NCBI GenBank assembly: GCA_024680055.1
Contig: JAILCP010000097.1
Span: 1-64,000 of the forward strand
Direction of reading: 5' to 3'
Length of the DNA stretch: 64,000 nucleotides
DNA from: Lachnospiraceae bacterium
GTDB lineage: Bacteria; Bacillota; Clostridia; Lachnospirales; Lachnospiraceae
The stretch's first letter is position 1, and every line of letters starts with the position of its first letter. Of this stretch, positions 14,757 through 56,521 are shown one piece after another. The position numbers were made by a program, and so were the translations under genes. Under the pieces are notes generated by a model that worked only from the letters and a program-made list of their open reading frames with translations, was not told the origin of the DNA and did no database searches.

Positions 14757-14863
14757 ATCACCTCTCTAAACGTCATTGAAACAAGTCTAGAATATCGCTT
14801 TGCACATGTCAACACAGTTATTTTCTTTTTAGATTTCTTAATATTTTTTTTATAAAATCAATT

Positions 14864-15208
14864 AGTAAGCAGGACTGTAAGCCGGGTTATGTCGTGAATG
14901 ATCATCTATCTAGAACGATTGTTACCAACCGTCTCAAGCGACCTACCTGAAGCTGGCGGGCCACGTCATCGCTTCTATCTGGTCTTGCTTCGAATGGGGT
15001 TTGCAGAGCCTGTCCTGTTACCAGAACAGCGGTAGTCTCTTACACTGCCTTTCCACCCTTACCGTAAAATACGGCGGTATATTTCTGTTGCACTTTCCTG
15101 GGAGTCACCTCCACCGGCCGTTAGCCGGCATCCTGCCCTATGAAGCCCGGACTTTCCTCACCTGCGGTCTTTCGACACTTGCAGCCGCGATCATTCGTCC
15201 TGCTTACT
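14864..15208 (-). ncRNA. rnpB: RNase P RNA (bacterial class A)
   Basis: Reverse strand has terminal P1 pairing (AGTAAGCAGGACGAATGATCGCGGCTG ... CTTACAGTCCTGCTTACT), conserved GAGGAAAGTCCGGGCT, and an internal GCGACCTACC region on the plus strand. Confidence 0.95.
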
Positions 15209-44773: not shown

Positions 44774-45060
44774 CCTGCTGCAAATTTTTATTAAAATGCT
44801 CGAAATAAAATTCCTTATTGTGTCTTTGTTGTGGCTACTGTAGCTCCCACTTTCTTGAGCCATTCCCACTACTCCCCAAACACGGTAAAATATAACACTA
44901 CTATCGTAATAGCTCAATTGCATCACCGATGCAAAGCACCCGAAGGGCCTGTCCTTGACGCCTGCTTTTCATACAGATAAAAAATAAGCAAGCCATATAA
45001 GGATTTTCCGGTTAAAAGGCAAAAGGAAAACCAGGAATGAAACTTTATCAGAATACGTAA

Positions 45061-45096
45061 TAAATCCCTGTGCAATGTTACTTACACAGGGATTTT
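45061..45096 (-). terminator. Terminator at the end of the putative corrinoid-uptake operon
   Basis: AAATCCCTGTG...CACAGGGATTT inverted repeat immediately after the 45098 stop. Confidence 0.8.
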
Positions 45097-45097
45097 A

Positions 45098-46057
45098 TTA
45101 TCCTCGTTTTATATTTAATAAATCAAAATAATAATCGTCTAAAAAGCAATACTGTTCTAATGTTGGACCGACATACATTCCATGGCGAACATTATAGCTT
45201 ATTTCAATAAGTTTTCCATTCTTATTAAAATAAAATACCAATGCCTGACTCATTAAAGGTGTGCAAGTGCCAGGATCATCATCGCCTTTTTGGGTTTTCG
45301 AATAAACAGGCTTTCCCATAAATACTAATGCATGGTGATAATCAGCATCCATATCATTTAAAAAAAGCATTTCCCACATTCCTTTTTTATCCCATGAGAC
45401 TTTCTTATCTCTATAGTATTCATAGTATTTTACACCTTTATACGCTTTTAATACATCTTTTTTTGTATCGCCATATTTAATTCCACGATTTGTAGGCTTG
45501 TCATAAATTGTATCATATTCTCCGTAGTTTTCTTTGTTTTCTGAACTTGTAACGGTGACCATAAGCACATCGTTCCATTTTTTATAAACCGCTTCTCCGG
45601 CTTTAATAAGGTCTGTAAATGTTTTCTTACCCCCCAATCTACACTTGAAAGAACCCGGCAACTTAAAATCTTCATTTTTCAAATAAATATCTTTGTTTTT
45701 TACAGTTACCTTTACTTTCGCAGTGCGATTACCACTTCTTACTGTAATGGTTGTCTTTCCCGGTTTTTTCCCTTTTACAACACCTTTTTTGGTAACGCTT
45801 GCAATTTTACTGTTGCTACTCTTGTAGGAATAGCTATGCTTCATTTTGTTTCCATGCTTGATAATTCTTCCGTAAGAGCGATAATCACGATAGGTTTCTC
45901 CTTTAATGACAACGGATCGAATTTCTCCCTTGCACAATGTCATGGATTTGTTCTCCACGGAAACACTTCCCTTTGCTGACACCGGAATGGAAGTGATACA
46001 GGTTGCTACTACAAGGACAAGTGCCATTGCAGTTTTTAATAGGTTGTTCTTTTTCAT
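45098..46057 (-). CDS. Secreted BIG2 (bacterial Ig-like) domain protein
   Basis: Start MKKNNLLKTAMALVLVVATCITSIPVSAKG (signal peptide); SYSYKSSNSKIASVTKKGVVKGKKPGKTTITV is a BIG2 signature. Confidence 0.88.
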   Translation of the reverse strand: MKKNNLLKTAMALVLVVATCITSIPVSAKGSVSVENKSMTLCKGEIRSVVIKGETYRDYRSYGRIIKHGNKMKHSYSYKSSNSKIASVTKKGVVKGKKPGKTTITVRSGNRTAKVKVTVKNKDIYLKNEDFKLPGSFKCRLGGKKTFTDLIKAGEAVYKKWNDVLMVTVTSSENKENYGEYDTIYDKPTNRGIKYGDTKKDVLKAYKGVKYYEYYRDKKVSWDKKGMWEMLFLNDMDADYHHALVFMGKPVYSKTQKGDDDPGTCTPLMSQALVFYFNKNGKLIEISYNVRHGMYVGPTLEQYCFLDDYYFDLLNIKRG

Positions 46058-46082
46058 AACTCCTTGGTCCTTTCGTTTTTTG

Positions 46083-47054
46083 TTAGCGGTAAATCCCGTA
46101 CTTAATCTTGATACGTTCGATTTTTCGTATGATGGGTTTACCAAAAAGAAATACACATACCGAGGCCATGGCCGCGTGAGTCAGGTCGTAGGGAAGCCCT
46201 GAGACGTAATAGACTTTTAGGGTTTCAAGGCTAAGGCCCATGCTGCCCGGCGCTGCCATGGAGGTGAACATGGTGGCCACATTCATAATGCCTCCGTATA
46301 TGAATAACACACTAAAAAAAGTATACACCGTTAAGGTAATCTGGTCTATCGGTAATTTTTTTCGCTGTAAAACAGCTCCTAGCCCAAGGCCCATGAGACC
46401 GGCCAGGTACACACGATAGCCAAAAAAGCTACCCTCCCCGTTGGGCCATAAAAGGTAGGTGCAAAAGGCGAGAACTTCGGTGATAAATACGCATACCAAA
46501 GGTCCCAGTACCATTCGAAAATGCTCCGATTTCATTTTTTCCTTTCGGAAATTTCCGGAAAGTTTCAATTCATCTTGTTCCAACTTGTTGAAAACAAAGC
46601 CCGCCAAAAAGGCCAACAGACCCCAGCTCACCATCTGCCAGGGCGTCCAGGCACCCTGACCCTGATAAAAGTTCAATACAAATCTGGAAATGGCACCGAT
46701 TAAAAAGCCGGCTTCCGGGCCAAAGGAAATGCCGGCCACCACCACCAGAGCGGTACCGATGGACACACCGCCCATCATATGAAATACCAGGTGGGCCATA
46801 ACAATGATTGCAATCATCATGGCAATTAAAACAATTTCCCTGGCTTTGGGCTTACGTTTTTCAAATATCATAAAAAAGGGCAACATGGTGTAAAACGCAA
46901 TCAGCAGACTCAGAAAAATATATCCTGTGTTTTTTAGCCAAAAAACCCCTGCATAAAGGGTAAAAGGCATAAGAAGGATAATAATGACTGTGGCTGCTAT
47001 GGTGCGCTTTTTGTGACTGATTGCCTCAATTCCTTCGTACGCTGTTCTACTCAT
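46083..47054 (-). CDS. ECF transporter S component (predicted corrinoid-specific)
   Basis: Multi-TM protein (GISFGPEAGFLIGAISRFVLNFYQGQGAWTPWQMVSWGLLAFLAG) next to ECF A and T genes, downstream of a cobalamin riboswitch. Confidence 0.82.
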   Translation of the reverse strand: MSRTAYEGIEAISHKKRTIAATVIIILLMPFTLYAGVFWLKNTGYIFLSLLIAFYTMLPFFMIFEKRKPKAREIVLIAMMIAIIVMAHLVFHMMGGVSIGTALVVVAGISFGPEAGFLIGAISRFVLNFYQGQGAWTPWQMVSWGLLAFLAGFVFNKLEQDELKLSGNFRKEKMKSEHFRMVLGPLVCVFITEVLAFCTYLLWPNGEGSFFGYRVYLAGLMGLGLGAVLQRKKLPIDQITLTVYTFFSVLFIYGGIMNVATMFTSMAAPGSMGLSLETLKVYYVSGLPYDLTHAAMASVCVFLFGKPIIRKIERIKIKYGIYR

Positions 47055-48741
47055 GAACTAATCTCCTAACCACACTTTCCCAGGTAACCGCATCCGGAAA
47101 CCAGTTACGTAAAAGACGATTGGCCCCTGTGGTGTAAAAACAATTTCCGGCAAAAAACGGTACCGCTTCACCCTCAGAGGTGATTTCGCCGTCAAAAAAC
47201 ATGGCGCAGCGATCCGCGTAGGATGCACAGAACTCCACATCATGGGACACCATTAAAATGGACATGCCCTCTTTTGTAAGGTCCTTTAAAATTCCTGCAA
47301 GGGTGCGCTTAAAAAATGGATCAAGCCCCTTGGTGGGTTCGTCCATTAAAAGGATTTTTGGTTTTAGAAGAAGAATTTTTCCAATAGCAAGTCGCTGCTG
47401 TTCCCCGCCGGATAAATCATAAGGGTGATTTTCGCGAAGGGCGGAAAGCTCCATTTTTTCAAGCATTTCTTCCACCATGGAAACTTTTTCTTCATCCGAA
47501 ATTTTCATAGGAAGTACCACTTCCAAAAGCTCATCTTCCACTGTAATCTCGGTAAACAGGGATTGTGGATTTTGCGGCACCATGGCAAGACTTCCCGGGA
47601 AAAAGTCGTTACGATGTTTCTTTTTCATTTCTTTTCCTGAAATGGTAATATGCCCGCTTTGAGGTTCTACAATGCCGCAAATACTTTTTAAGGTGGTGGA
47701 CTTTCCAACACCATTGCCCCCAAGAAGACAATAGAGTTGTCCCTTTTCCAAAGAAAGGTTCAAGCCACGAAGCACCGGCTCCTGATGTTTGCTGTAGGAA
47801 AAGTATACATCTTTTACCTCTAATACCACGTCCTTCTTCTCCCGTTCTCCGGTGGTAAAAGAAGGGGCACTGTAGGTTTTATCCCCAAGGATTTGCTTTA
47901 GCCAGCGCTTTCCTTCCAAAATGGTAAGGGGCGGTTTTTCCTGCCCGTTGACCAGGTAGGGATCAAGACCCTTCTCTCTTGTTTTGGCATAGATTTTGGA
48001 AATGGCAGGGAGGCCGTAAAACATAGGGTTATGTTCCTTTGCCAGCTTCATTCCAATGTGTTCCGGCTGATCTAGGGCCACCTTTTTTCCCCTGTCCATC
48101 ACAAGCACCTTTCCGGCCATGGTAAAAAGTTCCTCCAGCCGGTGTTCCGATATAATAATGGTGGTTCCAAGCTCCTGGTTGATTTTATAGACCGTTTTTA
48201 AAAATTCCGAGGCTGCAATAGGGTCCAGCTGACTTGTTGGTTCATCAAGGATCAGCACCTTGGGCTGCATCACCATAACTGATGCCAGATTCAAAAGCTG
48301 CTTTTGGCCACCGGATAAGGTGACCACATCCTTTCGAAACCAGGACTGAATTTCAAAAAAGCTGGCCATCTCCGCCACACGTCGTTTGATAATCTCATTG
48401 CTTAATCCAAGGGATTCCAGGCCAAAGGCCAACTCATGCCACACCTTGTCCGTAACGATTTGATTGTCCGGATTCTGGCTGACAAAACCAATTTCAGAAG
48501 CTGCCACCCGATCCTCAAGTTCTGTTACATTTTTTCCGTAGTAGCATACCTCTCCCTCCATCATGCCATAGGGAATCAGTTTCTTTTTCATATGACGCAG
48601 CAAGGTACTTTTACCGCATCCGGACTTTCCGCATACCACCAGAAACTCCCCCTCTTCCACACCAAAACTAATGTGATCAAGGGCTTGTCCCTCCGCCGTG
48701 GGATAGGTAAAACTTACATCTTTGACTTCAATTGCTGCCAT
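47047..48741 (-). CDS. ECF transporter duplicated ATPase (A1-A2 fusion)
   Basis: Two ABC cassettes: GKSGCGKSTLLRHM/TLSGGQKQLLNLASVMVMQPKVLILDEPT and GGNGVGKSTTLKSI/DLSGGEQQRLAIGKILLLKPKILLMDEPT. Confidence 0.95.
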   Translation of the reverse strand: MAAIEVKDVSFTYPTAEGQALDHISFGVEEGEFLVVCGKSGCGKSTLLRHMKKKLIPYGMMEGEVCYYGKNVTELEDRVAASEIGFVSQNPDNQIVTDKVWHELAFGLESLGLSNEIIKRRVAEMASFFEIQSWFRKDVVTLSGGQKQLLNLASVMVMQPKVLILDEPTSQLDPIAASEFLKTVYKINQELGTTIIISEHRLEELFTMAGKVLVMDRGKKVALDQPEHIGMKLAKEHNPMFYGLPAISKIYAKTREKGLDPYLVNGQEKPPLTILEGKRWLKQILGDKTYSAPSFTTGEREKKDVVLEVKDVYFSYSKHQEPVLRGLNLSLEKGQLYCLLGGNGVGKSTTLKSICGIVEPQSGHITISGKEMKKKHRNDFFPGSLAMVPQNPQSLFTEITVEDELLEVVLPMKISDEEKVSMVEEMLEKMELSALRENHPYDLSGGEQQRLAIGKILLLKPKILLMDEPTKGLDPFFKRTLAGILKDLTKEGMSILMVSHDVEFCASYADRCAMFFDGEITSEGEAVPFFAGNCFYTTGANRLLRNWFPDAVTWESVVRRLVHE

Positions 48742-49625
48742 TTTCTTTCTCCTCTAATATCCAGAATCATAGGCACAACCATAAGGCATACATATGCCAG
48801 ATAGGCCAATGCCTTCAAAAAGCTCCAGGGTTTTAGACGAACCACCGGATAATAATAACAGTTGGTATATCCAAGTACACAGCAGGGTAAAATAATCACG
48901 CTGCAAATCAACATAACAAAAAGTAAACGTCCATCCGATTTTTGAAACTTAAAAAGATGGAACTGACTTCGATGGGGCAATCCATAGCCCCTTGCTTCCA
49001 TGGAATCGGAGGTCTCAATGGAGGCTTCCAGGGACCAGGAAATCAAAATGGAAATTTCCTTGGTCAGCTGTCTCATCTGCTGAATCAAAGAGCCCTTTCC
49101 ATGGCGTCCCATACACTGCTGTCCCATGCGAATTTCCCGGTAACGCTCCTTTAACAGCGGAATGAACCGGAAAACCATACTTAGCGTCAGCCCAAGGACT
49201 GACGCTATTTTTCCAAATAAATATATAATTTTGTCCGCACTCATAATCACTTGAAAGGTGCGAAGCCATAAAATCACCGTAACGCAAAGGCACGCCGATG
49301 ATATACCAAAAAGAAAGGCCTCTAAGGTGATTCTGTTGTTATTGATAAAAAACAGTACCGTAGCACCGTTATGAGAGAAAAAACCGTTGATTGCCGTCAT
49401 CATAACTGCCACCGGCAGGGTGATGAGCAGGTTGATTTTCATGGTCTTTACTCCTCCAAGAATCACCGTATAAAACCAGGCGCATAAAAATGCGGTGGCT
49501 AAAAATACGGGATCGTTGGAAAAGATATTGATGACAATCACCAGAACATAAAAAATCACATTCACCATGGGATGCACTTTTTGAAATCCGGCACTTTCTC
49601 CCAATCCCTCCAATAAAAACTTCAT
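48714..49625 (-). CDS. ECF transporter T component
   Basis: Multi-TM with coupling motif SDSMEARGYG. Confidence 0.92.
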   Translation of the reverse strand: MKFLLEGLGESAGFQKVHPMVNVIFYVLVIVINIFSNDPVFLATAFLCAWFYTVILGGVKTMKINLLITLPVAVMMTAINGFFSHNGATVLFFINNNRITLEAFLFGISSACLCVTVILWLRTFQVIMSADKIIYLFGKIASVLGLTLSMVFRFIPLLKERYREIRMGQQCMGRHGKGSLIQQMRQLTKEISILISWSLEASIETSDSMEARGYGLPHRSQFHLFKFQKSDGRLLFVMLICSVIILPCCVLGYTNCYYYPVVRLKPWSFLKALAYLAYVCLMVVPMILDIRGERKWQQLKSKM

Positions 49626-51613
49626 TATAAAATCCTTATTTTTTTAACACTGCTATAGCTTGTGTATATTTTTTTGTTTCCGATTTTGTAGTAATTACGC
49701 ACCTTCACATAATAGGTTTTCTTTGATTTTAACCCGGTGATGGTGGTTTTATTTGTGCTCTTTTTATTCTTTGTAAAAGATTTGTTGGTGGCAAGTACCA
49801 CATTGCTTCCATCCGTCAAAAGATCTCCCTTTACACTTACGTTCAGGGTTCCCTTTTTGGTGGAAGAAAGACTTACCTTTTGTTTTGAAAAAGTTGCCTT
49901 TTTGTACTCTCCAAGGGCGTAAACCGCCTGTTCTGTGGCCATCTGGTTCACTGTGGCACTGTAGCCATCTGTGGCCTTATTCACGTGACGAAAGCCTCCC
50001 ACAGTGCTGTCGTAGTAGGTCAAAAAGTTATCCATCACACTATGACCCTGTTTTACAAAACGTGGGTCTTTATCTGCATCAATGCCAAGGGAAGAAAGGG
50101 CACAAATGACCTGAGCCGCACTTTCGCTGGACTGTACACCATAGGTTTGAAAGCCTCCGTCGGACTGCTGCATCGCGGATAAGGCATTGACTCCTTTTTT
50201 CACTGCCGCTTTTACCCTTTTATCGGAAGAGACATAAGGGGAAAGGGCGTGAATGCACATGGCTGTCACATCCGGATCTGCATTTCCCTTGTTATTAAGG
50301 TTCCATCCTCCGTTCTTTAAGGACGTATCCATCAGCTCCTGAATCAAAGCCTTTCTGGTGGTCTGCTTTCCCTCTGTTGTGGTTGGAATCTCATAGTTTC
50401 CCTGATCAAAGGCACGAAGGGCCCAGGCCGTACTGTTCACACCCTGCCAGTTCACTTTGTCAAGGTTGGCAAGGGGCGTTAAAAGATTGACCCCATTAAC
50501 ATTGGTAACGTCCCATCCCAGGGTTGCGTAACAAAATACCACACGTTCATACTCTGTCATTTTTCGATCGTGCAAAATTCCCGTCTGACCTCGGTAGCCT
50601 TCTTCCAACGCCTTTTCCACCGAAGTTCTGTAGGCATTCAAAAAGCTTTGCGGCATGTTGTAGTCTCCCAGTTTTAAGGCATACATCAACCATTCTCCGC
50701 CAATGTTTCCATAGGCCGGTGCTCCTTTTGCCGACTGATACAAATAGTCCAACGACTTCTTATAGGAGGTAGAAAGGCCGCTTGCTGCGGCTTTTCTGTA
50801 TGCTTTCTTGTTTCCGGCCCCCTTTAAGTCATCGCCCAGTCCTCTGCAGGTGTACTTCCACACAATAGTATCACCGTCTGACAGATAGTAGGAGGAACAA
50901 CCGTAATTAGGATACCAGCCGTTCACCTCATACATCCATCCGGACTGAGATCCTGCGTCAAATTCATAGAGGTAATTAATTCCCTCCACGTAATAAGACT
51001 CATATACCGGTGTGTAATTGTATTCAATCTGAATATCATTGTTTCTGCATAAGGTATTTAAAGCATCAAACACGGTGTTGTCCGTGGTTCCTTTGTAGGT
51101 TGTTTTGGCAAGAATCTCTCCATCTTCCGGAATATAATCCTTAATGGATTCATTCTCCAGATAATCCATGTGATTGGAAAGGGTGTCACAACGTATCTCC
51201 AGTGTGACAGTAACATTTTCCTTCTTTTCCGGTTTTAATGCTTCATTTCCGTCGTTGGATGCAGTTGGATCACTGCTGTTGTCCACTGCTGCTTCCTTTG
51301 GAGTCACCTTTTTATCCTTTGAGGCAACGGTCTTTTTCCCACTTTCCTTTTTGGTTTCTTTCTTTTTCTTTTCTTTTTGAGCTTCTTTTTCGGTTTCTTT
51401 TTTGGTTTTTTCCTTCTCTTTGGAAGGTTCCTTTGTCACTTGCGCAACTGCGTTGGCACTGGCCATATTTCCTCTGCCGTCGGCCAACTTACTGTTTTTT
51501 CCTTCAATTCGTGTAAGAACCCCGATACCCATAACCAAAATCAGTGCAATTACAATAAGGTACGCAAATTTTTGATTTCGGTGATTGTGTAGTTTTTTCC
51601 CTAAATCAGACAT
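49625..51613 (-). CDS. Membrane-anchored DUF4430 + alpha/alpha-barrel (prenyltransferase/squalene-cyclase-like) protein, transcobalamin-like
   Basis: N-terminal TM; DUF4430 region NTVFDALNTLCRNNDIQIEY..GINYLYEFDAGSQSGWMYEVNGWYPNYGCSSYYLSDGDTIVWKYT; repeats GVNSTAWALRAFDQGNYEIP, NADPDVTAMCIHALSPY, GGFQTYGVQSSESAAQVICALSSLGID; C-terminal FN3-like. Confidence 0.85.
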   Translation of the reverse strand: MSDLGKKLHNHRNQKFAYLIVIALILVMGIGVLTRIEGKNSKLADGRGNMASANAVAQVTKEPSKEKEKTKKETEKEAQKEKKKKETKKESGKKTVASKDKKVTPKEAAVDNSSDPTASNDGNEALKPEKKENVTVTLEIRCDTLSNHMDYLENESIKDYIPEDGEILAKTTYKGTTDNTVFDALNTLCRNNDIQIEYNYTPVYESYYVEGINYLYEFDAGSQSGWMYEVNGWYPNYGCSSYYLSDGDTIVWKYTCRGLGDDLKGAGNKKAYRKAAASGLSTSYKKSLDYLYQSAKGAPAYGNIGGEWLMYALKLGDYNMPQSFLNAYRTSVEKALEEGYRGQTGILHDRKMTEYERVVFCYATLGWDVTNVNGVNLLTPLANLDKVNWQGVNSTAWALRAFDQGNYEIPTTTEGKQTTRKALIQELMDTSLKNGGWNLNNKGNADPDVTAMCIHALSPYVSSDKRVKAAVKKGVNALSAMQQSDGGFQTYGVQSSESAAQVICALSSLGIDADKDPRFVKQGHSVMDNFLTYYDSTVGGFRHVNKATDGYSATVNQMATEQAVYALGEYKKATFSKQKVSLSSTKKGTLNVSVKGDLLTDGSNVVLATNKSFTKNKKSTNKTTITGLKSKKTYYVKVRNYYKIGNKKIYTSYSSVKKIRIL

Positions 51614-51615
51614 TT

Positions 51616-54600
51616 TTATTTACTTCTCCATTTAGATTTTACATATTTACATTTCGTCAAAGAAGTGCTGCTTACCTGCTTGCCGGATACGTCATAGACT
51701 CTCATTTTCACTTTGTAGTAATAGGACTTTCCCTTTTTACCACTGCGGTAGCTATAAGATGAGGCCGTTCTTGTTGCGGCTCTCTTATATCCGGAAGACT
51801 TCTTTGCAGATCTATAATAACTGTACTTAACAGTATAGCCCAATTTCTTTAATTTGGAAACGTTTGACTTGTTTCCTGTCACCGTCAGCTTTTTGCCGCT
51901 GACCTTGGCTTTCAATGTAACTTTGGTTAAAAGGTCTGTGACCTTCCCTGTCATTACACTTTCATCCACCAAAAGGAAACGACTGAAATGGCCTGTGGTT
52001 AACCCTGCATAGGTCACACCGTCCACCTTGGTTGTAGTTACGGCAAACTGTTCAAGGCTTCCGTCTTCCTTCTCATAAATACCAAGAAGACTCTTTCCTT
52101 CCAGGGCATCCGGGGTTGGCACCATAAGGCTTACCGTTCCTCCCTTAAAATCGTGAATGGTGGTGTCCCCCGCTGTAATGGTTGCATCAAAGGACACTGC
52201 TGCCTCTCCGTAGGTTTTCTTAACGTCCTTGGCTGCCTCCTGAGGCTTACTGATGGCAATGTCAATTTTCTTATCACCACATTGGGCCATGATTTCATTC
52301 ATGGTTTCACGGCTGAGATCCATATTTCCGCAAGGTGTTTCAATAACAATGGAGGCCTTGGTATCACTTACCACAGTTTCCAGAGTGGATTTATCCAGTG
52401 CCATGGATACCTCTTCTGCATCCTTTGTGTCTTCTCCTGCTACTGAAATCTTAATCTGCTCTGCATTTTTCTCTTTGGCGTCACTGATAATTTCTTTTAC
52501 CGTATCCTCGGTTAAGGTTGCCTTGGCTACCACCTTTTCTGTTCCATCCGCAGAAACTTTTACCTCCTTTTCCACTTTCGCTTCCATTGTGGAGGTCACC
52601 GCTTCTTTTTTCTCTTCTTTTTTCTCTTCCTCTTTCTTTTCCTCTTCCTTTTGGGTGTTTTCATCAGCCCACTTTTCCGATCCCTGTTCTTTGGTAAAAT
52701 CGTCGGTATAGTGGAATACCACACTGTCTCCGTCGGCTAAAAACTGCTCTGCCACACCAAATAACGGATGATTTCCGTTTAAGGTGTACATCCATCCGGA
52801 ATTCTTTCCATTGTCAAATTCTCCAAGGCCATTGATGGATTCCACATAATTGCCGCTTGGATTGCTATAGGTCATGTTGTTTTCACTTAACACCTTTTCC
52901 AGCAATTCCTTTACTGTGGCATTTAAATCCAGGGTGTAATTCTTCCTTGCCACCCAGGTTTTTAATCCGCCATTTCGTAGGGTATGCACGGTTCCTTCCC
53001 CGTGTTTGTCATCTCCGTATAAAACAAAGCTGACCGTAATGGTCTTTTTCTCTTCACTTTCTTTTTGTAATACGGTAACCTTCACCTGAGCTGCTGTATT
53101 CATATAAGTAAAGGTAACGGTTTGCACTTCATGTTTCTTCTTGTTGTAGCCTGTGATTTTTATATCCTTTGCACTTAACACCCTACTTGTACCATCGGTC
53201 ATATAGGCTGTGATTGCCGCATTGGAAAGATCCAGGTCGTCTCCAAGATAATAGGTGGTCGGAACACCCATCACCGTTAATTTATAACAATTGGTCTGTT
53301 TCACCCATTGTTCTACCGTTCCGTTTTTAAATAAGGCGCTGCTTACACCCTTTGTAAGTTTCTCCTTATCTGCACCAAGCGGATCGTCTTCCCGATTGTG
53401 CGCCACTTTAAAGGAACACCATTGTACCTTTGGACATCCCAGGGTATTTGCTTCTGTGTTAAAATACGTTACTCCATCCACCGGTGTATACTGTCCTTTT
53501 GTATCCACATACAATACGGCTCCAATACCTTCGCTTGCGCCGCAGGCAGTATCATAGTAATTGTTTTCCACGTTGGTATATTTATTCAGAGACTTTATAT
53601 AGCCTGCAATTCCTCCAACATACTCTGCACCATCTCCTGCATGCAAGGTTCCGGTAAAACTGTTATTTACAATGTACCCAATGCCGTTATCCCAGGCCTG
53701 AGAACATACCGGCTCTGCTCCAAGAATACCGCCTACATAATCTGTTCCCTGTACGGTGGCTTTTACCTTATTATCTTTTAAAACCGCACACGGTGTATTT
53801 GGCGCCGATCCATCCGGATAACCGCTACCGCAAATTCCGCCTGCGTAGTTTCCATCGGCAATGACTTCGCCTAAAAAGGTACATCCGTTGGCTTCAAAAG
53901 GTCCCATAGCCTGTCCCTTTCGGCCAAGAATACCGCCTACATAATTGTTTCCGTAGACAGTGGCATAGCTGACGCAGTTTTCCACTGTTCCGTTAAAGCT
54001 TCCTCCAATGGAACCGGTTCCTGTAACAGCATCACATTTTGCAGGCGCGTTTAAATCAGCATCGTAACCGATTTTGACACCTTTTTCCACAGTGCAGTTT
54101 TTTACATTGATGGTATTTACTCCGGAAGCGTATCCTGAGGCAATACCGCTTCCTTTGATGGTTGTTCCGGATTTTACGGTAACATTTTCCACATTTAAAA
54201 TATAATCCGGAGCCGAGGCATAACTTCCCTTTTCCCCGTAATCCACAAAGTAATGGTTCAAAAGTCCGCTTCCTGCAATGTAAGCGCCTTTGATATTTAC
54301 ATTTTTAACCGTTGCTTCCCTTGCATAGTTCAGCAGTGGTAATTGGCCATAAGCCATGGTAATGGTATGATGATCACCGTCTAGTATTCCGTTAAAAGGA
54401 AGGATATTCGCTCCCTTTCCCTCGTTCTTTGCTCCTTCTTTTAAACCGCCAAGACCGGTAAAACTATCGGACAGTTCAATGTCACCCGTAAGTTTAAAAT
54501 ACTTTCCTTTTATATCTTCTCCGGAAAGTACCAAAGAATTTAAAATACGTAGATCTTTCTCACCGGAAATCAGATAGGGATTGGTTTCACTGCCTGCTCC

Positions 54601-56229
54601 CTCCATATCTGCCCTGGTAACGGTAACAACCGCTTTTTCACTGACTGCCATATCGGAAATATAGCCATCTTCTATTTTTACCACCTTACAATAATAGTTT
54701 CCCTCACCGGCTTTATCCGTGGAAGGTGTGCAATAGGAGGTCAATCCGTCCTCTCCCTTATGAGATTTCACATAGTTTCCGTCTTTATACCAGGTAAAAA
54801 GATAAGTTCCCCGGCCTTTTACTTTTACGCTTAATTCCTTGGCAGAATCTCCCACTGCATAGGTAGCGCTCTTTGGCTGCTCAATCATGACCGGAGCTTC
54901 AATCTCCGGATTATAGCCGCGACACTGGCACATCCAGGCCGCATTTAAAATACTGTCGTTTTTGGTAGCTGAAATGGTGATTTTTTCTTTTTGCTCTTCT
55001 GTGCCTCCATAATATACATTGATTAAGGCCTTGCAATTGTTAAATGCGTATGAGCCTATATTGGTTACCGTTTCCGGAATATAAATCTCCTTTAAAGCCT
55101 CACATCCACCAAACGTATAACTGGAGACTCCGGTTAAAGCCTTTGGCATTACAACAGTTTCAAGAACCTTACAGTTGGTAAAAATATTGGTTCCAAAGCT
55201 TGTAATAGAATCGTTTAATACCACCTTTTTCAATGAAGCACATCCATTGAACATGGATTTTGGCAACGTCTTTACATTGGCATTTACAACCGCTTCCTGC
55301 ACTGAAGAATTGGCAAAAGCATTTTCTCCAAGGGCTGTCACTGTCCCCGGAAGAATCACTTTTGTAAGGCTTGTACAATAATAAAATGCATATTTTTCTA
55401 TGGATGTTACACTTTCGCCAAATGAAACTCCCGTAGGTGTCTGATATTGAAAAGCGTATTCTCCAATGGCAGTCACCGTTTCCGGAATACTTACTTCTTT
55501 TCCTGCAGTATTATAACCGAGTACCACCTTTTTCTTATCTGCGGTTAAAAGCAGTCCTCCTTCACTGACAAAATTCCCATTTTTCTCTGCCACCTGAATG
55601 TTTTCAATAGAAGGGCAATTCCTAAAATTATTTGCACCAATGGATTCCATGGTGGATGGAAAGGAAATGGTTTTTAGGGAAGTACAGTTTTGAAAAATCA
55701 TATTGTTTTTGTTAACCAGGCCGTCAACTCCAAGGCTTCCTTCTTTATAGGTAATTTCCGTCAGGCTTTTACAGTCTGCAAACGCAGAGTTTAAAATACC
55801 GTTTGCATTGTCCTTGGTGTTGGCCACAGCTGCCGGAATGGTCACACTTGTTAATCCGGATCCTTTAAAAGCATACATTCCGATTTTCACAAGGCTATCC
55901 GGCAATTCCACGCTGACTAACTTGGTCGCACTTTGAAATGCATATTTTGACACGGTGGTCACACCTTCGCCAATCACCACACCGGTGATGTTAGCCAGAT
56001 TCTTTTTCCATGGTACAGAATTTGCATTCTTAAATTCTGTCATCGCTCCGCTTCCCTGTATGGTTAATACCCCATCTTCCAGAGTGTAGGTGAGGTTATC
56101 CCCACAGGTTCCGTTTTGGGCTTCTTGTGCGTAAGAAATAAGATACCCAAAGTTGCTTACATCCACACCGGTAAAAATCAGTGTCAATGCAAGAAACAGT
56201 GCCAATAGTTTTGTTCCGTTCTTTCTCAT
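51616..56229 (-). CDS. Giant secreted BspA-type LRR / Ig-like / DUF4430 multidomain protein
   Basis: 1537 aa; signal peptide; LRR_5 repeats (VTTVSKYAFQSATKLVSVELPDSLVKIGMYAFKG); Ig-like; GLUG-like repeats; DUF4430 GEFDNGKNSGWMYTLNGNHPLFGVAEQFLADGDSVVFHYT; Lys/Glu-rich linker. Confidence 0.88.
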   Translation of the reverse strand: MRKNGTKLLALFLALTLIFTGVDVSNFGYLISYAQEAQNGTCGDNLTYTLEDGVLTIQGSGAMTEFKNANSVPWKKNLANITGVVIGEGVTTVSKYAFQSATKLVSVELPDSLVKIGMYAFKGSGLTSVTIPAAVANTKDNANGILNSAFADCKSLTEITYKEGSLGVDGLVNKNNMIFQNCTSLKTISFPSTMESIGANNFRNCPSIENIQVAEKNGNFVSEGGLLLTADKKKVVLGYNTAGKEVSIPETVTAIGEYAFQYQTPTGVSFGESVTSIEKYAFYYCTSLTKVILPGTVTALGENAFANSSVQEAVVNANVKTLPKSMFNGCASLKKVVLNDSITSFGTNIFTNCKVLETVVMPKALTGVSSYTFGGCEALKEIYIPETVTNIGSYAFNNCKALINVYYGGTEEQKEKITISATKNDSILNAAWMCQCRGYNPEIEAPVMIEQPKSATYAVGDSAKELSVKVKGRGTYLFTWYKDGNYVKSHKGEDGLTSYCTPSTDKAGEGNYYCKVVKIEDGYISDMAVSEKAVVTVTRADMEGAGSETNPYLISGEKDLRILNSLVLSGEDIKGKYFKLTGDIELSDSFTGLGGLKEGAKNEGKGANILPFNGILDGDHHTITMAYGQLPLLNYAREATVKNVNIKGAYIAGSGLLNHYFVDYGEKGSYASAPDYILNVENVTVKSGTTIKGSGIASGYASGVNTINVKNCTVEKGVKIGYDADLNAPAKCDAVTGTGSIGGSFNGTVENCVSYATVYGNNYVGGILGRKGQAMGPFEANGCTFLGEVIADGNYAGGICGSGYPDGSAPNTPCAVLKDNKVKATVQGTDYVGGILGAEPVCSQAWDNGIGYIVNNSFTGTLHAGDGAEYVGGIAGYIKSLNKYTNVENNYYDTACGASEGIGAVLYVDTKGQYTPVDGVTYFNTEANTLGCPKVQWCSFKVAHNREDDPLGADKEKLTKGVSSALFKNGTVEQWVKQTNCYKLTVMGVPTTYYLGDDLDLSNAAITAYMTDGTSRVLSAKDIKITGYNKKKHEVQTVTFTYMNTAAQVKVTVLQKESEEKKTITVSFVLYGDDKHGEGTVHTLRNGGLKTWVARKNYTLDLNATVKELLEKVLSENNMTYSNPSGNYVESINGLGEFDNGKNSGWMYTLNGNHPLFGVAEQFLADGDSVVFHYTDDFTKEQGSEKWADENTQKEEEKKEEEKKEEKKEAVTSTMEAKVEKEVKVSADGTEKVVAKATLTEDTVKEIISDAKEKNAEQIKISVAGEDTKDAEEVSMALDKSTLETVVSDTKASIVIETPCGNMDLSRETMNEIMAQCGDKKIDIAISKPQEAAKDVKKTYGEAAVSFDATITAGDTTIHDFKGGTVSLMVPTPDALEGKSLLGIYEKEDGSLEQFAVTTTKVDGVTYAGLTTGHFSRFLLVDESVMTGKVTDLLTKVTLKAKVSGKKLTVTGNKSNVSKLKKLGYTVKYSYYRSAKKSSGYKRAATRTASSYSYRSGKKGKSYYYKVKMRVYDVSGKQVSSTSLTKCKYVKSKWRSK

Positions 56230-56272
56230 TGTATTCTCCTGTTCTTAGAACCACTTTTTCGCACAAAAATAG

Positions 56273-56299
56273 CTTGTCCATGCTCCTCGGCACGACAAG
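56273..56299 (-). terminator. Riboswitch expression-platform terminator
   Basis: Minus: CTTGTCGTGCCGAGGAGCATGGACAAG then CTATTTTTG, between the aptamer and the first gene. Confidence 0.75.
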
Positions 56300-56309
56300 T
56301 TTTTCCGAA

Positions 56310-56470
56310 ATGTTATGCATGTCTCCTGACTTGGACGTCAACGCTTTATTCGCCTTCTCACTTTCGCAATGGCCTATTGAATAAAACTGTTTCCTTACAG
56401 TGGCGGGACCGTGCAGGTCTTTCACCTGCTTCCATCTTAGCTTTGTATTCCTACAAAGAACATAACCCGG
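56310..56470 (-). promoter_or_regulatory. Cobalamin (AdoCbl) riboswitch
   Basis: Minus: GGTTATGTTC..GGAAGCAGGTGAAAGACCTGCACGGTCCCGCCACTGTAAGGAAACAG...GTGAGAAGGCG...GTCCAAGTCAGGAGACATGCATAAC; has the GCCACTG and AAGTCAGGAGAC cores and P1 GTTATG/CATAAC. Confidence 0.95.
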
Positions 56471-56492
56471 TTCCTATTTTATTAACGGAACA

Positions 56493-56521
56493 ACTATACC
56501 ATGTTCTAATATTAATTTCAA
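56493..56521 (-). promoter_or_regulatory. Sigma-A promoter upstream of the riboswitch
   Basis: Minus TTGAAA-17 bp-TATAGT. Confidence 0.8.

What the first reader, a model, noticed from the sequence alone, without database searches (positions are those of the whole stretch)
45098..56521. Candidate riboswitch-controlled Gram-positive corrinoid capture and ECF import operon
Seen: sigma-A promoter, cobalamin aptamer, terminator hairpin, then six same-strand genes with overlaps or short gaps, ending at a terminator (45061-45096). Gene order: BspA-LRR/Ig/DUF4430 protein, DUF4430/alpha-barrel protein, ECF-T, ECF-AA, ECF-S, BIG2 secreted protein. Established: DUF4430-like domains are related to the C-terminal domain of transcobalamin/intrinsic factor, and ECF transporters can import corrinoids. 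Inference: the two large extracellular proteins capture corrinoid and hand it to a dedicated ECF importer, a functional analogue of BtuG/BtuB/BtuF in Bacteroidetes or of intrinsic factor in mammals.
Basis: partly seen in the sequence, partly recalled or inferred. Interest (0 to 1): 0.92.

Follow-up and report, generated by a model that had tools for sequence, protein, structure and literature searches.

The report
Bacterial transcobalamin-like vitamin B12 import operon
This Gram-positive bacterium carries a B12-sensing RNA switch in front of genes for outside-facing proteins built from the same domain that human B12 carriers (intrinsic factor, transcobalamin) use to hold the vitamin, followed by a B12-type membrane importer; the pairing recurs in about half of the related genomes tested and points to a widespread, uncharacterised B12-capture system.

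Summary
On the minus strand lie an RF00174 cobalamin aptamer (105.5 bits, the only one in the genome), two large extracellular DUF4430 proteins, ECF-T, ECF-AA, ECF-S, a BIG2 protein and a strong terminator. (1) The S profile is nearest to CbrT, the one S component proven to import cobalamin (E=6e-19; next RibU 6e-6). (2) The predicted DUF4430 domain matches only transcobalamin, intrinsic-factor and haptocorrin beta domains plus one bacterial DUF4430 structure at E<=1e-3. (3) Across about 150 family genomes, CbrT-type S genes and DUF4430 co-occur in 71, with one exception each way. (4) cbrS, beside proven cbrT in L. delbrueckii, is itself a DUF4430 gene. (5) The genome lacks CobS and any BtuC-type permease but has MetH-like and other B12-binding proteins. 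Best explanation: a corrinoid capture-and-import operon in which transcobalamin-like proteins feed a dedicated CbrT-type ECF importer. Binding, B12 repression and hand-off are inferred, not shown. The alpha-barrel is a generic alpha/alpha toroid, and the BIG2 protein is not a conserved part. I rate it a new variant of a known kind (ECF-CbrT).

The parts
56493..56521 (-). promoter-like site TTGAAA-17-TATAGT with TG before the -10
   Evidence: consensus match only
56299..56480 (-). cobalamin riboswitch aptamer (RF00174)
   Evidence: 105.5 bits, E=2.2e-25; only copy in the genome
56265..56299 (-). candidate expression-platform hairpin CTTGTCGTGCCGAGGAGCATGGACAAG followed by a short T run
   Evidence: z=-1.7, weak; clearer terminators at this place in L032, L033, L036, L054
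51616..56229 (-). secreted 1537-aa surface protein: signal peptide, BspA-type LRR_5, Ig-like, Big_3, DUF4430
   Evidence: LRR_5 4e-62, DUF4430 1.8e-15, Big_3 2e-9; signal peptide by inspection
52705..52902 (-). DUF4430 (transcobalamin-beta-like) domain of the large surface protein
   Evidence: 62 bits in genome search
49625..51613 (-). membrane-anchored (N-terminal hydrophobic segment, by inspection) 662-aa protein: DUF4430, alpha/alpha-barrel, small C-terminal domain
   Evidence: model of residues 136-572, pLDDT 90
50846..51208 (-). DUF4430 domain with transcobalamin/intrinsic factor beta-domain fold
   Evidence: the PDB hits at E<=1e-3 are all TC/IF/HC or DUF4430 3u7z
49898..50704 (-). alpha/alpha-toroid barrel domain, conserved partner of DUF4430
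   Evidence: near DUF4430 in 64 of 81 barrel-bearing phylum genomes
48714..49625 (-). ECF transporter T component (CbiQ family)
   Evidence: PF02361 2.4e-9
47047..48741 (-). ECF ATPases A and A' fused in one protein
   Evidence: two ABC_tran stretches; TIGR04520 2.9e-109
46083..47054 (-). ECF S component, CbrT-type
   Evidence: 6fnp CbrT 1.3e-4; profile: CbrT 6.2e-19, RibU 5.6e-6
45098..46057 (-). secreted BIG2 protein at the end of the operon; lineage-specific, role unknown
   Evidence: its C-terminal part found no homolog in the 34 related loci
45058..45098 (-). intrinsic terminator of the operon
   Evidence: -21.4 kcal/mol, z=-5.9

Best explanation
The operon is a corrinoid (vitamin B12 and relatives) capture-and-import system, made when cobalamin is scarce. 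(a) A cobalamin riboswitch senses the intracellular corrinoid coenzyme and stops the transcript when it is plentiful. (b) Outside the cell, two proteins with transcobalamin-beta-like DUF4430 domains, one secreted on an LRR/Ig surface scaffold and one membrane-anchored with an alpha/alpha-barrel, bind corrinoid. By analogy with transcobalamin, whose separate alpha and beta domains assemble on the ligand, the beta domain binds first and the barrel closes over it. (c) They pass the corrinoid to a CbrT-type S component, which with the operon's own T and double-ATPase subunits imports it using ATP. (d) In the cell it serves a MetH-like methionine synthase, a corrinoid methyltransferase and a B12-radical-SAM protein in a genome that lacks CobS and BtuC. 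Shown here by computation: the parts, their co-occurrence, DUF4430 fold identity, nearest S relative, missing alternatives. Inferred: binding, riboswitch response, hand-off, order of steps.
For: RF00174 aptamer, sole copy. S profile to CbrT 6fnp E=6e-19 versus RibU 6e-6; 6FNP is the proven ECF-CbrT (PMC5997447). DUF4430 profiles hit haptocorrin, IF and TC by sequence, and the predicted domain (pLDDT 97) hits only these and 3u7z at E<=1e-3, TM 0.54-0.69, next unrelated at E=0.08. S and DUF4430 in the same genomes 71 times, S only 1, DUF4430 only 1; 41 of 42 short and 32 of 35 long S genes have DUF4430 near. 39 of 106 DUF4430 domains within 15 kb downstream of a riboswitch; my estimate by chance about 0.3. 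CbrS beside proven CbrT is DUF4430. Genome: no CobS, no FecCD, B12-binding proteins present. Isolated human TC-beta binds CNCbl and the two TC domains assemble on ligand (PMC5599065).
Against: No binding or expression data. ECF-CbrT transports cobalamin as a purified complex without any DUF4430 protein (PMC5997447), so DUF4430 is not strictly required. Lactococcus lactis has DUF4430 but no RF00174 hit among the controls, so not every DUF4430 need be a corrinoid binder; 22 of 110 domains are unlinked to S. The barrel's nearest structures are terpene cyclases, not TC. The leader terminator is weak. The ligand could be a cobamide precursor rather than B12. L. delbrueckii DSM 20074 kept cbrT after losing most of cbrS.
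Confidence: 0.85

Rival explanations
1. The ECF transporter imports corrinoids under riboswitch control, but the DUF4430/barrel proteins do not bind corrinoid themselves; they bind host or microbial B12 carriers, or act as adhesins that hold the cell near a B12 source.
For: The large protein carries BspA-LRR and Ig-like domains typical of adhesins; DUF4430 is a beta-grasp-like fold that could bind protein (weak Urm1/MoaD hits); CbrT works without DUF4430 in vitro (PMC5997447).
Against: Minimal loci have just a DUF4430 lipoprotein of about 140 aa plus an S component, with no adhesin part; in TC the same domain binds Cbl alone (PMC5599065).
Confidence: 0.1
2. The transporter handles a B12 precursor (cobinamide or a lower-ligand base) rather than complete cobalamin or cobamides.
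For: CbrT also moves cobinamide and is promiscuous (PMC5997447); cobalamin riboswitches often control precursor salvage (established knowledge).
Against: The genome lacks CobS, so a precursor without the nucleotide loop could not be completed by the known route; complete cobamides are the usable ligand.
Confidence: 0.1
3. The ECF-S is a riboflavin or other vitamin transporter and the riboswitch and DUF4430 are coincidental.
For: Pfam names the S protein ECF-ribofla_trS.
Against: The profile prefers CbrT by 42 bits over RibU; S plus DUF4430 plus RF00174 recurs across the phylum.
Confidence: 0.02
4. Cobalt import (CbiMNQO-like) under a B12 riboswitch.
For: The T component belongs to the CbiQ Pfam family.
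Against: No CbiM or CbiN gene in the operon; the S component is CbrT-like; CobS is absent.
Confidence: 0.02

Closest known systems
ECF-CbrT cobalamin transporter of Lactobacillus delbrueckii (PDB 6FNP; PMC5997447)
   Same: S component of the same family; a DUF4430 gene (cbrS) sits next to cbrT; lack of BtuCD.
   Different: Here T, AA and S are in one operon (dedicated module) under a cobalamin riboswitch, with two large extracellular DUF4430 proteins and an alpha-barrel; CbrS is one small protein of unreported function.
Transcobalamin / intrinsic factor / haptocorrin
   Same: DUF4430 has the beta-domain fold and detectable sequence similarity; partner domain is an alpha/alpha toroid; in some relatives barrel and DUF4430 are fused in the TC order (L048, L060, L061, L064).
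   Different: Window order is DUF4430 then barrel; barrel sequence and best structural matches are terpene cyclases rather than TC; no PF01122 hit; bacterial, membrane- or surface-attached, coupled to an ECF importer.
BtuG-BtuB of Bacteroides (PMC6143338)
   Same: Works-like comparison: a surface protein that captures B12 and feeds a transporter, encoded next to transport genes.
   Different: Unrelated proteins and a Gram-negative outer-membrane system; here a single-membrane cell and an ECF importer.
RUMGNA_00854 of Ruminococcus gnavus (PDB 3u7z, 'putative metal binding protein')
   Same: Short DUF4430 protein, profile E=1.2e-29.
   Different: A stand-alone domain with no published function in the held library; its genome context was not examined here.

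Membership tests
CbrT-type ECF cobalamin transporter | S component more similar to CbrT than to other solved S components | tested here: met
   CbrT 6e-19, RibU 6e-6, 4hzu 1e-4
CbrT-type ECF cobalamin transporter | complete energising module (T and two ATPases) | tested here: met
   T 48714-49625, fused double ATPase 47047-48741
CbrT-type ECF cobalamin transporter | ATP-dependent cobalamin uptake | not testable with these tools
   needs a transport assay
CbrT-type ECF cobalamin transporter | genome context tied to B12 use and lack of BtuCD | tested here: met
   RF00174, no FecCD, B12-binding proteins present
Transcobalamin / intrinsic factor / haptocorrin family | beta domain with DUF4430-type fold | tested here: met
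   all hits at E<=1e-3 are this family or 3u7z
Transcobalamin / intrinsic factor / haptocorrin family | alpha6/alpha6 barrel of the PF01122 family | tested here: not met
   no PF01122; same general toroid fold but nearest to terpene cyclases, TC at rank 22 (TM 0.42)
Transcobalamin / intrinsic factor / haptocorrin family | alpha domain first, beta domain second in one chain | tested here: not met
   window order reversed; TC order only in L048, L060, L061, L064
Transcobalamin / intrinsic factor / haptocorrin family | high-affinity cobalamin binding | not testable with these tools
   needs ITC, SPR or UV-vis
Cobalamin riboswitch (RF00174) | match above curated gathering score over the whole model | tested here: met
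   105.5 vs 31.5 bits, positions 1-189
Cobalamin riboswitch (RF00174) | ligand-dependent expression platform | tested here: inconclusive
   weak hairpin; clearer terminators in relatives

The most novel reading that the evidence does not exclude
Gram-positive bacteria have their own intrinsic-factor-like system: DUF4430 beta domains, alone or with alpha/alpha-barrels, are extracellular corrinoid-binding subunits that deliver ligand to CbrT-type S components. ECF importers, normally thought to need no extracellular binding protein, would then have one, and the vertebrate B12 carriers would share their ligand-binding domain with an old bacterial B12-uptake protein.
Probability: 0.65. Interest if true: 0.87.

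Novelty: new variant of a known kind. Interest (0 to 1): 0.76.

Why it matters
How B12-dependent gut bacteria obtain corrinoids is described as an open problem for many genomes (PMC6593275). This analysis attaches a domain of unknown function found in 72 of 150 family and 121 of 399 phylum genomes to B12 uptake, predicts the role of the uncharacterised cbrS gene beside a proven transporter, and names bacterial relatives of the ligand-binding domain of intrinsic factor and transcobalamin. If true it opens a direct test of competition for B12 between gut bacteria and host carriers, and of where the vertebrate carriers' domain came from.

Tried and rejected
Viral-contig scan with the S protein: nothing. 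A mixed CbrT alignment was too diverse for the search for related loci, so CbrT alone was used. Riboflavin transport (from the Pfam name) and cobalt transport rejected. Sequence profile of the barrel against the PDB found squalene cyclases, prenyltransferases and complement/alpha-2-macroglobulin toroids but no transcobalamin, so I do not claim barrel homology to TC. The BIG2 protein as a core part rejected: no homolog in the 34 related loci. No paper in the held library assigns a function to bacterial DUF4430 or CbrS; most subscription journals are not held and the founding ECF paper (Rodionov 2009) could not be read.
Full report
WHAT IS THERE. The minus strand from 56521 to 45058 carries a promoter-like site, a full-length RF00174 cobalamin aptamer (56299-56480, 105.5 bits), and closely packed genes. 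P0001 is a 1537-aa secreted protein with BspA-type LRRs, an Ig-like part, Big_3 and DUF4430. P0002 is a 662-aa protein with an N-terminal membrane anchor (by inspection), DUF4430 (179-255 by Pfam) and an alpha-barrel. Then come ECF T, a fused double ATPase, ECF S, and a BIG2 protein whose likely start is ATG 46057. A strong terminator follows (z=-5.9). The leader hairpin at 56299-56273 is only a plausible terminator, but four relatives have clear hairpin plus T-tract terminators between aptamer and gene.

SUBSTRATE. The only PDB chain with a good match to the S protein is 6fnp_A (E=1.3e-4). A profile of 19 relatives hits it at 6e-19, against 6e-6 for RibU and 1e-4 for 4hzu. 6FNP is ECF-CbrT, shown to transport cobalamin and cobinamide (PMC5997447). 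The genome (99% complete) has one cobalamin riboswitch, no CobS and no FecCD/BtuC permease. It does have corrinoid-binding proteins: a MetH-like protein (homocysteine methyltransferase, pterin-binding and both B12-binding domains), a small corrinoid protein flanked by a URO-D-type methyltransferase and a RACo-like reactivator, and a B12-radical-SAM protein. It therefore looks like a corrinoid user that cannot complete cobamides by the usual route, with this operon as the only importer I recognised.

CAPTURE PROTEINS. DUF4430 profiles from the operon and its relatives find, in the PDB, 3u7z (R. gnavus, E=1e-29), haptocorrin (7e-6), intrinsic factor (2e-3) and transcobalamin-2 (0.08). The predicted structure of the P0002 domain (pLDDT 97) matches transcobalamin, intrinsic factor and haptocorrin beta domains and 3u7z, and nothing else, at E<=1e-3 (TM 0.54-0.69); the next hit, Urm1, is at E=0.08. 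In humans the isolated TC beta domain binds cyanocobalamin and cobinamide, and the two domains assemble on the ligand (PMC5599065). The barrel is a well-predicted alpha/alpha toroid. Its nearest relatives by sequence and fold are terpene cyclases and prenyltransferases, with TC at rank 22, so its kinship to the TC alpha domain is not established.

COMPARATIVE GENOMICS. Around 34 S homologs in family genomes, 31 loci carry DUF4430, most also a barrel gene and the T-AA-S genes; DUF4430 and barrel are found split, fused DUF-barrel, or fused barrel-DUF as in TC, and S is often fused to the ATPase. Cobalamin riboswitches lie upstream in 17 of the 34. In 150 family genomes, 39 of 106 DUF4430 domains are within 15 kb downstream, same strand, of an RF00174 match; my estimate of chance is about 0.3. 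A second, minimal form exists: riboswitch, short DUF4430 protein (about 140 aa, lipoprotein or single anchor), short CbrT-like S (about 175 aa), with no T or ATPase gene beside them, so presumably sharing another ECF module. 41 of 42 such short S genes have DUF4430 within 1 kb; by genome, S and DUF4430 co-occur 71 times with one exception each way. Caveats: the short-S profile was built from DUF4430-adjacent genes, the cut-offs for counting S genes were mine, and the riboswitch table was truncated at 150 rows. In a 399-genome phylum sample the barrel is in 81 genomes, 64 of which have a listed DUF4430 within 10 kb. Of 11 phylum loci read, 8 have RF00174 and 10 have ECF genes; one is riboswitch, DUF4430, S, cobalamin adenosyltransferase (L102).

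LINK TO A PROVEN TRANSPORTER. In L. delbrueckii-type DNA (L091) the gene between nrdJ and cbrT, called cbrS in PMC5997447, encodes DUF4430 (Pfam 1e-20), as do its counterparts in three other lactobacilli. This ties DUF4430 to the experimentally proven ECF cobalamin importer.

MECHANISM. Most likely: low intracellular cobalamin turns the operon on; the surface LRR/DUF4430 protein and the membrane-anchored DUF4430-barrel protein bind corrinoid; the S component receives it; the T-ATPase module imports it. Shown computationally: parts, fold, kinship, co-occurrence, absence of alternatives. Inferred: binding, switch response, hand-off, the barrel closing over the ligand. CbrT works without DUF4430 in vitro (PMC5997447), so the capture proteins probably raise affinity or local concentration rather than being obligatory.

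KNOWN OR NEW. ECF-CbrT, cobalamin riboswitches and the DUF4430-transcobalamin resemblance are known (DUF4430 is named as the C-terminal domain of TCN proteins in PMC4350170). I found no paper in the held library that gives bacterial DUF4430 or CbrS a role in corrinoid capture; that search does not cover most subscription journals. I therefore rate it a new variant of a known kind.

Noticed in passing
L100 5961-9363: A fused NifH-NifD-like protein (Fer4_NifH plus Oxidored_nitro) and a second Oxidored_nitro protein sit between the DUF4430 gene and the S component of a riboswitch-led corrinoid ECF operon; not seen in the other loci fetched. Nitrogenase-like enzymes can act on tetrapyrroles (from memory), so a role in modifying imported corrinoid is conceivable.
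   Followed up: partly
L033 2513-6506, L034 10563-14681, L047 10210-14289: MoxR-like ATPase, DUF58-like and transglutaminase-like genes lie next to the DUF4430/ECF genes in three loci (names from sequence inspection).
   Followed up: partly
L092 4588-4981: L. delbrueckii DSM 20074 keeps cbrT but has lost most of nrdJ and cbrS: fragments of nrdJ run directly into the last 45 codons of cbrS.
   Followed up: yes
L091: A contig labelled Faecalicatena absiana holds a cbrT gene 98% identical to L. delbrueckii with the same gene order: probable contamination of that assembly.
   Followed up: no
L076 1-2469 and L077 231-1886: The window's genome has two further DUF4430 genes on other contigs (822-aa open frame cut at the contig start; 551 aa DUF4430-barrel), neither near an RF00174 match.
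   Followed up: partly
L094 4143-4854: Two cbrS-like DUF4430 reading frames in tandem upstream of cbrT in an uncultured Lactobacillus.
   Followed up: no
window 14862-15206 and L077 12258-12331: RNase P RNA (class A) in the window; a fluoride riboswitch on another contig of the same genome.
   Followed up: no
L052 14248-15138: Two divergent cobalamin riboswitches back to back, one facing the ECF operon and the other a 1362-aa DUF4430 protein.
   Followed up: no
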